Source of the DNA: Candidatus Hydrogenedentota bacterium
GTDB lineage: Bacteria > Hydrogenedentota > Hydrogenedentia > Hydrogenedentales > JAGMZX01
Length of the DNA stretch: 64,000 nucleotides
NCBI GenBank assembly: GCA_029556545.1
Contig: JAKQEQ010000153.1
Coordinates: 111,442-175,441, forward strand
Direction of reading: 5' to 3'
Made by a program: the position numbers and the translations under genes. Within the stretch, counting starts at the first letter, position 1; each line of letters opens with the position of its first letter. The notes beneath the pieces were generated by a model. That model saw only the letters and a program-made list of their open reading frames with translations. It did not search any database and had not been told where the DNA came from. Positions 1 to 40,326 of the stretch are shown one piece after another.

Positions 1-420
1 GGCGTCGAGCAGGTGCGAGGCGGCATCGAGAGCCTCCTTCGCGTTATCCAGGCGTGCTTGCGCCACGGTCTTCTCTTCCGGACTCAGGTCGCGGGTAGTC
101 TTTTCGCCACACTGCGGAGTATTCGTGGTCACGGAGCGGTAGAACGGCGTCGCGCGCATGAGCGGTTTCGCCCATTCTTCCTTTGTGTGAATTATTGTGG
201 ATATAAGTTCCCCGGATTCGAGTTCGAGACCATACAATGCGTCACGCAGACCGCCTTCGAGGTTCCGCGTCATTTCACGTTCCACTAACACCAGGAAATC
301 CCAATCCGAGTCGGGCTGGGCGTCGCCGCGGGCGCGCGATCCATAGAGGATGACCTGCGCGTTCGGGTCGAACCGCAGTACCGCGGCCTTCACGGCCTGT
401 ATGAGTTCCTGGTCGGTCAT
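1..420 (-). CDS. MNT-type nucleotidyltransferase continuing in frame into a HEPN domain (partial, cut by window edge)
   Basis: The frame is open from the ATG at 420 to the window edge, so only about 140 codons are visible. Residues 27-32 GSRARG and the acidic pair D39/D41 (SDWDFL) form the active site of an MNT minimal nucleotidyltransferase. That domain would normally end near residue 100 (FYRSVTTN). Here the same frame runs on into DLSPEEKTVAQARLDNAKEA, which resembles the first helix of a HEPN protein. In known HEPN-MNT pairs the MNT antitoxin modifies and silences the HEPN RNase, usually as two overlapping genes; a single chain is less usual. An in-frame ATG at 468 would add 16 residues. 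Neither start has a strong ribosome-binding site. The nucleotidyltransferase call is firm; the HEPN call rests on one helix. Confidence 0.72.
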   Translation of the reverse strand, partial: MTDQELIQAVKAAVLRFDPNAQVILYGSRARGDAQPDSDWDFLVLVEREMTRNLEGGLRDALYGLELESGELISTIIHTKEEWAKPLMRATPFYRSVTTNTPQCGEKTTRDLSPEEKTVAQARLDNAKEALDAASHLLDA

Positions 421-473
421 CGGGCCTTCGCTACTTTCCAATACGACACGCTTCACATTATACGGCATGCTGC

Positions 474-494
474 GGCACGGGCGTCTCGCCCGTG
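474..494. repeat. 21-bp GC palindrome, copy 1
   Basis: Read on the minus strand, this copy contains arms CACGGGCG and CGCCCGTG around a 3-base loop AGA, followed by CC. The identical 21 bases occur at 34692-34712 inside a coding sequence. It lies just upstream of the MNT-HEPN gene and next to a second hairpin element at 501-557. Confidence 0.75.
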
Positions 495-561: not shown

Positions 562-1971
562 TTACTTGTACTCCCATTCGCGGATGTCGACGAAGCGGCC
601 TTTGATCGCCGCGGCGACGGCCATGCCCGGGCTGACGAGGTGCGTGCGGCCGCCTTTGCCCTGGCGTCCCTCGAAATTGCGGTTCGAGGTCGAGGCGCAG
701 CGGTCGCCGGGGTTGAGCCGGTCCTCGTTCATGGCGAGGCGCATGCTGCACCCGGCCTCGCGCCACTCGAAGCCCGCTTCCCGGAACACCTTGTCCAGTC
801 CCTCGGCCTCGGCCTGTTCCTTCACGTGTTGCGAACCCGGCACAACGAGGGCCTGCTCGATGGCCGCGTGGACCTTGTAGCCCTTCGCGACGGCCGCCGC
901 CGCGCGCAAGTCCTCGATGCGCGCGTTCGTACACGAGCCCAGGAACATCTTGTTGATCGCAATCTCGGTGATCGGCGTTCCCTCGTCGAGGCCCATGTAT
1001 TGCAGCGCCTTTTCATAGGCGAGCCGCGTATTGGCGTCGGCCGTCTCCGCGAGCACGGGCGTACGGCCGCGGACACCCGTCACCATGCCGGGCGACGTGC
1101 CCCAGGTGACCTGGGGCTCGATATTCCGCGCGTCCAGTTCGACGACGCGGTCATACGCGCAGCCGGAATCGGACGCCCACGACAGCCACGACGCCGCGAG
1201 CTGCTTCCACGGCGTATCCTTCGGCAGGTAAGGACGGCCCTCGAGGTACGCCGCCGTCTTCTCGTCCGGCGAGATGAGCCCCGCGCGCGCGCCCGCCTCG
1301 ATGCTCATGTTGCACACGGTCATGCGCCCTTCCATCGACAACCCGCGGATCGCCTCGCCCGTGTACTCGATGACGTAGCCGGTGCCGCCCGCCGTGCCGA
1401 TCTCGCCGATGATCGCCAAAACGATGTCTTTCGCCGTAATGCCGCTGGGCAGCGCGCCGCCGACCCGCACCTCCATCGTCTTCGAGGGCTTCTGGAGCAG
1501 CGTCTGCGTCGCGAGCACGTGCTCGACCTCGCTGGTGCCGATGCCAAACGCCAGCGCGCCGAACGCGCCGTGCGTCGAGGTGTGCGAATCGCCGCAGACG
1601 ATGGTCATGCCCGGTTGCGTCAGCCCGAGTTCCGGCCCGATGACGTGGACGATGCCGTTGCGCCGGTCGTACATGTCGAAGAGCGCGATGCCGGACTCCT
1701 TGCAGTTGGCCGCGAGTTTCTCGACCTGCTGCTTTGACAGGGGGTCGGCGATGGGCCGTGCTCGGTCCGTCGTCGGGATGTTGTGGTCCATCGTCGCGAA
1801 GGTCAACTCGGGGCGCCGCACGGTGCGGCCCGCGAGGCGCAGCCCCTCGAACGCCTGCGGCGACGTTACCTCGTGGACGTAGTGCCGGTCGATGTACAGA
1901 ATCGCGTCTTGACCCTCGGGCGCATGGACCAGATGGGCCGCCCATATCTTCTCGTAGATGTTCTTCGGCAT
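562..1971 (-). CDS. leuC: 3-isopropylmalate dehydratase large subunit
   Basis: This is the aconitase-family large subunit that isomerises 2- to 3-isopropylmalate in leucine synthesis, acting with LeuD in the cytoplasm. The 469 residues match the usual LeuC length. Visible hallmarks are [20 protein letters not shown], the cluster-ligand stretch [14 protein letters not shown], and [16 protein letters not shown] near the C-terminus. The start at 1971 ([10 protein letters not shown]) has AGGA about 8 bases upstream; the longer frame to 2031 overlaps tag and is not needed. One feature is odd. The motif that carries two [4Fe-4S] ligands in LeuC (GCSMCLAMN in E. coli) reads GCSMRLAMN, so the third ligand, residue 411, is Arg (CGC for TGC). 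No leuD is adjacent. The gene follows tag by 26 bp and may be cotranscribed with it. Activity is doubtful unless the Arg is an assembly error. Confidence 0.93.
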
Positions 1972-34005: not shown

Positions 34006-35151
34006 ATGTCTTCTGAAACACGTTCCCCCCTCGATGTCTTTGAAGCGGTCTGTTCCGATTTCTATGCGGCGGCGCGGGAGGCGGCGGCGCACGGCCGGAA
34101 GATCGCCGGATTTCTCTGCTCGTATGCGCCGCAGGAGCTGGCGCATGCGGCGGGGTATATGCCCGTGCGCGTGCTCGGGCGGCCCGGGGGCACGCCGCGG
34201 GCCGACGAATTGATCCAGCCTTTCGCGTGCAGCTTCGCGCGGAGCAGCTTCGACAGCGCCCTGGCGGATGAGTTGGATTTCCTCGATCTGGTCGTGTTCT
34301 CGCACACGTGCGACACGATGCAGAACGTGGCGGACCTCTGGAGGCGCAAGAAGCCGGAACACAACGCGTTAATCGTGTCGTTGCCGACTCATACGCAAGG
34401 GACCGCCGCGCGCGCGTATTTTCGCGCCGAGTTGCAGCGGGTGCGCGAGCGCATCGAGGCGCTGGCGGGCGCGATCGACGACGAGACCCTCCGTTCAAGC
34501 ATCGGTCTCTACCAGCGCCACCGGAATGCGATGAATCGGCTGTATGCGGTGCGCCGCGAGCATCCCGACCACCTGAACGGGCGGCAGGTGTTGTCCGCCG
34601 TCGTATCGTCACTGTTGATGCCGAAGGAAGAACACCTGCCGTTGCTCGAAACGCTCGTTGCTCACGTCGAGACCACGCCAGCGGGCGATGACACGGGCGA
34701 GACGCCCGTGCCACGTGTCTTCGTAGCCGGTAGCGTGTGCCAGAACATGGGATTCATCGCGGCCATCGAGGAAGCGGGCTGCGCGGTGGTGGACGACGAC
34801 CTCTGCATGGGCTCGCGCCAGTTCTGCATGGAATATGCGGACGCGGCGGACCCGCTCGATGCGCTGGCTGAGATGTACCTGTCGCGTAGACCCTGCCCGG
34901 CGTTCCACGCGCCGGGATTCGACCCCGGGCGGCATCTCGTCGAAAAGGCCCGGACCGCCCGCGCGGACGGAGTCGTGTTCCTCCTGACCAAGTTCTGCGA
35001 TCCGTGGTTCTTCGACTATCCCCACGTGAACCAGGCCCTCGAGGATGCCGGCATCCCGACGCTGCTTGTCGAGGTCGAACAGCATTTGCCTGTGCCGGAG
35101 CAGTTCCGCACGCGCATCCAAGCCTTTTTCGAAATGCTCGCGGCGAGATAG
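34006..35151 (+). CDS. 2-hydroxyacyl-CoA dehydratase subunit (HgdB/FldB family)
   Basis: Dehydratases of this family eliminate water from 2-hydroxyacyl-CoA through a ketyl radical after ATP-driven activation. The 381-residue protein shows the family core: GFLCSYAPQELAHAAGYMP (about 36-54), VFSHTCDTMQNVADLW with a cluster Cys, the mid segment LCMGSRQFCME, and a late Cys in LTKFCDPWFFDYP. An insertion at about 225-236 (TPAGDDTGETPVPR) is encoded by a GC palindrome identical to the one at 474-494. The activator and partner subunit are 3 kb away at 38291-40326. Confidence 0.88.
   Translation: MSSETRSPLDVFEAVCSDFYAAAREAAAHGRKIAGFLCSYAPQELAHAAGYMPVRVLGRPGGTPRADELIQPFACSFARSSFDSALADELDFLDLVVFSHTCDTMQNVADLWRRKKPEHNALIVSLPTHTQGTAARAYFRAELQRVRERIEALAGAIDDETLRSSIGLYQRHRNAMNRLYAVRREHPDHLNGRQVLSAVVSSLLMPKEEHLPLLETLVAHVETTPAGDDTGETPVPRVFVAGSVCQNMGFIAAIEEAGCAVVDDDLCMGSRQFCMEYADAADPLDALAEMYLSRRPCPAFHAPGFDPGRHLVEKARTARADGVVFLLTKFCDPWFFDYPHVNQALEDAGIPTLLVEVEQHLPVPEQFRTRIQAFFEMLAAR
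34692..34712 (+). repeat. 21-bp GC palindrome, copy 2, inside a coding sequence
   Basis: Arms CACGGGCG and CGCCCGTG with loop AGA, followed by CC, exactly match the copy at 474-494. Here it is read through as TGETPVP in the dehydratase subunit without breaking the frame. Confidence 0.8.
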
Positions 35152-38290: not shown

Positions 38291-39100
38291 GTGAGCGGGG
38301 TGTTACTATTCGCGGGGGTGGACGTCGGGTCGGCGACGACGAAGGCCGTACTGGTGGACGTCGAGGGCCGGGTCGTGGCGCACACGGTGATCCCGAGCGG
38401 GGGGAAACTGGCGGCGGCGGCGACCGTCGTCCTCGAGCGCGTGCTGGGGGAGGCGCGCGTGACGATGGAAAACGTTGCGGCGCTGGTCTCTACGGGTTAC
38501 GGACGCGAGAGCGTGTCGGGGCGAACGAAGGCGGTCACGGAAATTACCTGCCACGCGCGGGGCGCGCACACGTTGAATCCGGCGGTGCGATCGGTGATCG
38601 ACATCGGCGGGCAGGATTCGAAGGCGATCGCGCTGGACGAGCGCGGCGGCGTGCGGCGTTTCGAGATGAACGACAAGTGCGCGGCGGGCACGGGCCGCTT
38701 TCTCGAGGTCATGGCGCGGACGCTGCAAGTCGGCCTCGACGAGATCGGGCCGTTGGCGCTGAGCGCGGAGTCGCCCGCGCGGATTTCCTCGACTTGCACC
38801 GTCTTCGCGGAGAGCGAGGTCATCTCGCTGCTTGCGCAGGACGAGAGCATCCCGAGCATCCTCGCGGGGTTATGCACGGCCATCGCGCAGCGGGTGAATT
38901 CGCTGGCGGCGCGGGTGGGCATGATGCCCGAGGTCATGATGACCGGGGGGGTTGCGAAGAACGTTGGGGTGGTCCGGGGCCTCGAACAGGCGGTTGGATT
39001 GCCGTTGATAACGCCGGAGGAACCGCAGATTGTGGGCGCGCTGGGCGCGGCTTTGATCGCGCGCGACCTCGGCGCGAGAAGACAGGACGCAACAGCATGA
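38291..39100 (+). CDS. 2-hydroxyacyl-CoA dehydratase activase (HgdC/BcrA-D family ATPase)
   Basis: This 269-residue [4Fe-4S] ATPase delivers a low-potential electron to the dehydratase. The ASKHA motif appears in GVDVGSATTKAVLVD (about 9) and in VIDIGGQDSKAIAL (about 103). The dimer-bridging cluster cysteines are in NDKCAAGTGRFLEVM (about 129) and SSTCTVFAESEV (about 168). The GTG start at 38291 is preceded by a GAGGG-like site. Its TGA overlaps the ATG of the next gene in ATGA, indicating translational coupling. Confidence 0.93.
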   Translation: MSGVLLFAGVDVGSATTKAVLVDVEGRVVAHTVIPSGGKLAAAATVVLERVLGEARVTMENVAALVSTGYGRESVSGRTKAVTEITCHARGAHTLNPAVRSVIDIGGQDSKAIALDERGGVRRFEMNDKCAAGTGRFLEVMARTLQVGLDEIGPLALSAESPARISSTCTVFAESEVISLLAQDESIPSILAGLCTAIAQRVNSLAARVGMMPEVMMTGGVAKNVGVVRGLEQAVGLPLITPEEPQIVGALGAALIARDLGARRQDATA

Positions 39101-40326
39101 GTGAAAAGCGCGTGAGGATTCGGTCGGCGGAGAAGATGAAGGAGATGATGACGCTTTATTACATGACAGCCAAGATGGCCGAGCAGGAGAAGAGCCCGAA
39201 GATCGCGTGGATTACCAGCGGGGGACCGGTCGAAATCCTGCACGCCGCGGGCGTCATCCCGATCTACCCTGAGAACCACGCGGCCATGTGCGGGACGGTC
39301 CGCATGGCGGACCGGCTTTGTGGCGTGGCCGAGGACCGGGGCTACTCGCGCGACCTGTGCTCGTACGCGCGATCGGACATTGGTTCGATCCTGAGCGGCG
39401 AGAGCCCGATAGGCGGGTCGCCGAAGCCGGACTTTCTGGTGTGCTGTAACAACATCTGCGGCACGGTGACCAAGTGGTACCAAGCGCTCCAGCGCATGTT
39501 CAATGTGCCGCTCATTTTCATCGACGCGCCGTACCAGTACGAGGCGGATCGGCCCGAGGCGCTGGCGTATATGAAGGCGCAACTCGAAGAAATGATTCAG
39601 ACCGTGGGTGAGATCACGGGCAAGCCGATCAAACCGGATACGCTCACGGAGACCCTGCTGCGGTCTGAAGAGGCGGTGCAATTGTGGCGGGACATCCAGG
39701 ATTTGCTGCGCCACCGGCCCGCGCCGATGAACTCGTTCGATACGTTTATTCATCTAGCGCCCATCGTGACCCTGCGCGGCACGCCCGAGTGCATCGATTA
39801 CTACAAGGAACTCAAGGCCGAGATGGAGGAGCGGGTTCGCGACGGTGTCGCCGCGGTCCCGGGCGAGCAATTCCGGCTCGGTTGGGACAATCTGGCCATC
39901 TGGTACAAGGTGAAGTTTCTTGCGGACAAGTTCGCCGAGCACCACGCGGCCCTGGTGGTCTCCACGTACACGGAGAACTTCTGTTACCAGGCGCCCGACC
40001 GCCGGGAAGACGACCTGCTCTGGACCATGGCCGCGAATTACCTTGGCGGTTATATCAATCATGGACTGGACTACCGCGAGCGCGAATTGACGGAGATGGC
40101 GGAGAACTTCCACCTGGACGGGTTCGTGATGCACTCGAACCGCAGTTGCCGCGCCTACTCGTTCGGCCAATATGAACTTGCGCAGAGCCTGGAGCGGAAA
40201 CGCGGCATCCCTACGCTCATGATCGAGGCCGACCAGAGCGATACGCGCGCCTGGTCCGACGAACAGGTTGCCACGCGCATCGACGCCTTCATGGAGTCGC
40301 TTGCCGCGCGCCGCGTGGCGGTCTGA
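39097..40326 (+). CDS. 2-hydroxyacyl-CoA dehydratase subunit (HgdA/FldC-like, partner of the activase)
   Basis: The 409-residue protein belongs to the dehydratase D-component family. It has KIAWITSGGPVEILHAAGVI (about 36), SRDLCSYARSDIGS with a ligand Cys, LVCCNNICGT, the central DNLAIWYKVKFL and the late VMHSNRSCRAYSFGQ with another Cys. It overlaps the activase by 4 bp. The other subunit is probably the gene at 34006. The substrate (glutaryl, phenyllactyl, lactyl or benzoyl type) cannot be read from sequence. Confidence 0.9.
   Translation: MSEKRVRIRSAEKMKEMMTLYYMTAKMAEQEKSPKIAWITSGGPVEILHAAGVIPIYPENHAAMCGTVRMADRLCGVAEDRGYSRDLCSYARSDIGSILSGESPIGGSPKPDFLVCCNNICGTVTKWYQALQRMFNVPLIFIDAPYQYEADRPEALAYMKAQLEEMIQTVGEITGKPIKPDTLTETLLRSEEAVQLWRDIQDLLRHRPAPMNSFDTFIHLAPIVTLRGTPECIDYYKELKAEMEERVRDGVAAVPGEQFRLGWDNLAIWYKVKFLADKFAEHHAALVVSTYTENFCYQAPDRREDDLLWTMAANYLGGYINHGLDYRERELTEMAENFHLDGFVMHSNRSCRAYSFGQYELAQSLERKRGIPTLMIEADQSDTRAWSDEQVATRIDAFMESLAARRVAV

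What the first reader, a model, noticed from the sequence alone, without database searches (positions are those of the whole stretch)
34692..34712. Palindromic repeat inserted in frame in a dehydratase gene
The 21 bases match the intergenic copy at 474-494 exactly, and add about 12 residues (TPAGDDTGETPVPR region) without breaking the protein. Coding palindromic elements of this kind are known in Rickettsia; this would be a comparable case in another lineage.
Basis: partly seen in the sequence, partly recalled or inferred. Interest (0 to 1): 0.6.

Follow-up and report, generated by a model that had tools for sequence, protein, structure and literature searches.

The report
Palindromic mobile repeat inside dehydratase gene
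A 23-base copy of a palindromic repeat that is scattered about 90 times through this Hydrogenedentota genome sits inside an enzyme gene and is translated as part of a flexible loop; the same repeat also interrupts roughly a dozen other genes without breaking them, a known but rarely documented way for tiny mobile DNA to add residues to proteins.

Summary
The 21 bases at 34692-34712 match 474-494 exactly (chance expectation about 0.01). They belong to a 23-nt REP element (GTGG tag, 8-bp stem, 3-nt loop) present 91 times by a strict pattern in this Hydrogenedentota genome, often as 51-56-nt inverted doublets (REPINs). Here a single REP lies in frame, antisense, in a 2-hydroxyacyl-CoA dehydratase subunit gene (PF06050). 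It encodes about DTGETPVPR in a predicted loop between two domains. Net growth against most other families is about 3 residues, not 12. The only congeneric orthologue held carries a diverged copy at the same site (22/25 nt); 23 orthologues from elsewhere lack it. So the insertion predates the split of these two species. About 14 of 91 copies interrupt genes in frame; clean insertions of 12 and 18 residues are seen in an AddA-like helicase and a PIG-L protein against insert-free orthologues. RAYT-like transposase genes flanked by this REP or a close variant occur in the congener and two further relatives; none was found in this assembly. Intragenic REPs are already described (PMC3733652). This is a new member of a known kind.

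The parts
34692..34714 (-). REP singlet GTGG-CACGGGCG-TCT-CGCCCGTG (tag, 8-bp stem, 3-nt loop), inside the coding sequence and antisense to it
   Evidence: exact match to the family consensus including the tag; hairpin z = -4.5 as ssDNA on the - strand
34006..35151 (+). host gene: 2-hydroxyacyl-CoA / 2-hydroxyglutaryl-CoA dehydratase D-component family protein, 381 aa
   Evidence: PF06050 full length, E 3.5e-85; PDB relative 3o3m_B
34675..34716 (+). inter-domain linker region TPAGDDTGETPVPR; residues DTGETPVPR are REP-encoded
   Evidence: alignment with 24 orthologues; lower-confidence coil between helix 207-223 and strand 237-242 in the model
472..494 (+). second REP singlet of the same family in this window (GCGG tag), intergenic
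   Evidence: lies between called genes 1-468(-) and 565-1971(-)

Best explanation
The 23 bases are one REP unit of a REP/REPIN family that spreads as non-autonomous mobile DNA, most likely through a RAYT (REP-associated HUH tyrosine transposase) acting in trans on single-stranded hairpins. A copy landed antisense in the linker of the dehydratase gene in an ancestor shared with at least one congener. It survived because the frame that reads TGETPVPR has no stop, the length change kept frame, and the linker is a tolerant loop. It is now translated as a near-neutral insert. Shown: the repeat family and its copies, an open frame through the copy, phylogenetic placement of the insert, REPIN doublets, and RAYT-like genes flanked by such REPs in relatives. 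Inferred: mobilisation by RAYT, translation in vivo, and functional neutrality.
For: 91 strict copies and 0 for the reversed control. YGTGG tag conserved across copies, with unrelated flanks outside it. 22 complete inverted doublets of 51-56 nt. 23 of 24 orthologues lack the residues; the congener has a 22/25-nt diverged copy at the same site, a score reached by 0 of 200 shuffles, whereas three outgroup linkers do not differ from shuffles. Clean in-frame insertions elsewhere: 12 aa in an AddA-like helicase against three orthologues and 18 aa in a PIG-L protein against one; MenD is also longer at its REPIN. Copies are depleted from coding sequence: about 14/91 against about 86% coding. The frame with a stop is seen only at gene ends. 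RAYT-like genes flanked by this REP in G001 and G029, and by a close variant in G052. The model places the insert in a loop.
Against: None of the five Y1_Tnp genes in this assembly is flanked by this REP. The congener RAYT scores below the NCBIfam cut-off (71.4 vs 80 bits). The window copy is a singlet, whereas doublets are thought to be the mobile unit (PMC3116915). Net length gain is only 3 residues, so insertion alone does not account for the linker; a later deletion must be assumed. Expression and neutrality are untested.
Confidence: 0.86

Rival explanations
1. The residues are an ancestral loop of the protein, and the DNA match to the repeat is coincidence.
For: The congener shares TPVPR at the same place.
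Against: 23 other orthologues lack it. A 23-nt match including the tag to a 91-copy repeat is not expected by chance. The congener's version is itself REP-like, 22/25 nt.
Confidence: 0.03
2. The hairpin is kept in the gene for a nucleic-acid function, such as intragenic attenuation, mRNA stabilisation or gyrase binding.
For: Perfect 8-bp stem retained here, with stable ssDNA folding, z -4.5.
Against: The congener's copy at the same site is diverged and its palindrome is broken, so pairing is not conserved. Copies are strongly depleted from coding sequence.
Confidence: 0.06
3. The insert modifies the enzyme adaptively: a protein-level co-option of the repeat peptide.
For: G055 carries a different palindromic doublet, with one GTAG-tagged unit, in the same linker.
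Against: The site is a flexible linker where many inserts are likely tolerated. Apart from TPVPR the linker residues differ between the two congeners.
Confidence: 0.05

Closest known systems
RAYT-associated REPs / REPINs, group 3 type (e.g. Stenotrophomonas REPtron Sm, PMC8266576; Pseudomonas REPINs, PMC3116915)
   Same: 23 nt: tetranucleotide tag, 8-bp perfect stem, 3-nt loop; inverted doublets; RAYT-like gene flanked by the repeats in relatives; mostly intergenic
   Different: Tag is GTGG rather than GTAG (GTGG is known in Pseudomonas, PMC2817692); stem CACGGGCG; no adjacent RAYT found in this assembly; activity untested
Intragenic GTAG/CGTC REPs (Di Nocera 2013, PMC3733652)
   Same: REPs within coding regions in frame, encoding short peptides, including DNA repair genes; REP ends supplying stop codons
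   Different: Different REP family and phylum; here several insertions are checked against insert-free orthologues
Rickettsia palindromic elements (RPE)
   Same: Palindromic repeats inserted in frame in genes of many functions
   Different: RPE-1 is longer; RPE-4 and RPE-6 are CGTC-tagged (PMC3733652). No sequence comparison with RPEs was run and common descent is not claimed

Membership tests
REP (repetitive extragenic palindromic) element | short palindromic unit with conserved unpaired 5' tag, many dispersed copies | tested here: met
   91 copies; tag G/T/G/G conserved in 88/80/83/87 of 91; flanks unrelated
REP (repetitive extragenic palindromic) element | mostly extragenic | tested here: met
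   about 14 of 91 internal to genes against about 86% coding
REPIN | two REPs in inverted orientation forming the replicating unit | tested here: met
   22 complete doublets of 51-56 nt in the genome, so the family meets it; the window copy itself is a singlet with no detectable second half
RAYT-associated REP | RAYT gene flanked by the same REP | tested here: inconclusive
   seen in congener G001 and in G029, and in G052 with a close variant; not found in this assembly
RAYT-associated REP | REP hairpin recognised and cleaved by TnpA-REP | not testable with these tools
   needs biochemistry
CGTC REP superfamily (including Rickettsia RPE-4/6) | terminal CGTC/TGTC/CCTC motif | tested here: not met
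   the conserved end is GTGG; definition read in PMC3733652
GTAG REP superfamily | GTAG tag | tested here: inconclusive
   tag is GTGG, a one-base variant known in Pseudomonas REPs

The most novel reading that the evidence does not exclude
In Hydrogenedentota, REPINs are a steady source of new protein linkers: unrelated REP families repeatedly enter the same tolerant loops, and lineages carry and remodel the inserts over long times, so mobile palindromes measurably shape the proteome of a phylum.
Probability: 0.2. Interest if true: 0.6.

Novelty: new member of a known kind. Interest (0 to 1): 0.4.

Why it matters
It extends in-frame REP insertion to an uncultured phylum. It gives cases that can be placed in time: one shared by two congeners and diverged in one of them, and others with insert-free orthologues. 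It supplies a set of natural insertion-tolerant sites. It also warns that TGETPVPR / GTGVSPV / DHGQDAHAT peptides in proteins of such genomes are repeat-derived, not conserved motifs.

Tried and rejected
A second, decayed REP half beside the window copy was sought and not supported (shuffle fractions about 0.4-0.6). A cognate RAYT adjacent to this REP in the window's own genome was sought and not found. Plasmid records hold no similar REPIN. Three ORFs spanning REPs (L174 first copy, L082, L162) were set aside by eye as probable fusions of neighbouring frames rather than true intragenic insertions. The IcmF-like comparison was inconclusive because other linkers there are as long. A search of papers for GETPVPR found none. 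One family scan failed on wrong coordinates.

Full report
Observation. The 21-mer at 34692-34712 (- strand) is identical to 474-494 (+ strand); 0.01 matches are expected by shuffling. The genome holds 15 exact copies and 91 copies of CACGGGCNNYNNGCCCGTG, with none of the reversed control. The pattern is also present in 34 of 68 genomes of the order. Named relatives of the host gene are Candidatus Hydrogenedentes / Hydrogenedentota.

Anatomy. Aligned with 40 bases on either side, the 91 copies agree from a YGTGG tag through an 8-bp stem and 3-nt loop. Outside the tag the flanks are unrelated; on the other side many copies run into a second, inverted unit. Complete doublets GTGG-REP-spacer-REP-CCAC number 22 here; across the genomes searched they are 51-56 nt long. 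This is the architecture of REPINs (PMC3116915). The single unit has the 23-nt layout of the Stenotrophomonas group 3 REP, with GTGG for GTAG (PMC8266576). The window copy 34692-34714 matches the consensus including the tag and folds stably as single-stranded DNA.

Host gene. ORF 34006-35151 encodes a full-length PF06050 protein. About 3 kb downstream lie a BadF-type ATPase and a second PF06050 gene, the usual partners of 2-hydroxyacyl-CoA dehydratases (general knowledge). Solved relatives include 3o3m_B. The AlphaFold model (mean pLDDT 91) places the insert in the coil between helix 207-223 and strand 237-242, where the block mean falls to 72.

Is it an insertion? Of 24 orthologues, 23 from outside the genus lack the residues, and their linkers are mostly shorter. 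The one congener held, 81% identical, has TPVPR and a site 22/25 nt identical to a genomic REPIN end, a score reached by none of 200 shuffles; three outgroup linkers score like shuffles. The insertion therefore predates the split of these two species. In the congener the palindrome is broken. Its linker is 8 residues longer than the 13-residue linkers of L046, L047 and L049, about the length of one 24-nt unit, while the window's is only 3 longer; I infer a later 15-nt deletion in the window lineage. L048 (G055) carries a different palindromic doublet, with one GTAG-tagged unit, in the same linker, so this loop has accepted palindromic repeats at least twice.

Not isolated. A home-made codon-usage gene caller (86% coding in the window) plus inspection puts about 14 of 91 copies inside genes in frame, far fewer than random placement would give. 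Against orthologues, an AddA-like helicase has a clean 12-residue insertion (three insert-free orthologues) and a PIG-L protein a clean 18-residue one, the length of a whole REPIN (one orthologue). MenD and a polyprenyl synthetase are also longer at the REP. A heparinase-like insert has a similar stretch in the congener but not in another family. The reading frame in which the REP contains TGA is seen only at gene ends, where it supplies the stop.

Mobility. The genome has five Y1_Tnp genes, some flanked by other REP-like hairpins, none by this family. In the congener G001 a RAYT-like gene (PF01797 25 bits, cut-off 23; NF047646 71 bits, cut-off 80) is flanked on both sides by arrays of this REP. 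G029 has a homologue flanked by it, and G052 one flanked by a GTGG-CATGGGC variant. RAYT action in trans is the most likely mechanism but is inferred, not shown.

Novelty. Intragenic REPs, including in DNA repair genes and in Rickettsia, are published (PMC3733652). A search for papers joining Hydrogenedentota with REP or REPIN terms returned, in its list, no paper with both; the library is not complete. The finding is real and largely explained: a new member of a known kind.

Noticed in passing
L048 (G055:C933), linker of the hgdD-like orthologue: A different palindromic doublet (GACAGGCG..CGCCTGTC and GACAGCCG..CGGCTGTC, one unit GTAG-tagged) sits in frame in the same loop, making about 14-20 extra residues.
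   Followed up: partly
L217/L269 (G001:C80:1-1173): A RAYT-like gene whose reading frame runs through the flanking REP arrays on both sides, giving repeated GTGVPPV..GQDAH peptides.
   Followed up: partly
L139 about 2400-2560 (polyprenyl synthetase): A second repeat, CCCTCTCCCTCGGGGAGAGG-type (peptide CSLSPRERAGVRV), appears in frame next to the REP; similar sequence lies beside several intergenic REPs.
   Followed up: no
L144, L160, L171, L172, L176: REPs at the 3' ends of genes supply the stop codon, giving the shared C-terminus ARASRP.
   Followed up: no
window 38291-40326: BadF-type activator ATPase followed by a second HGD-D gene, about 3 kb downstream of the host gene.
   Followed up: partly
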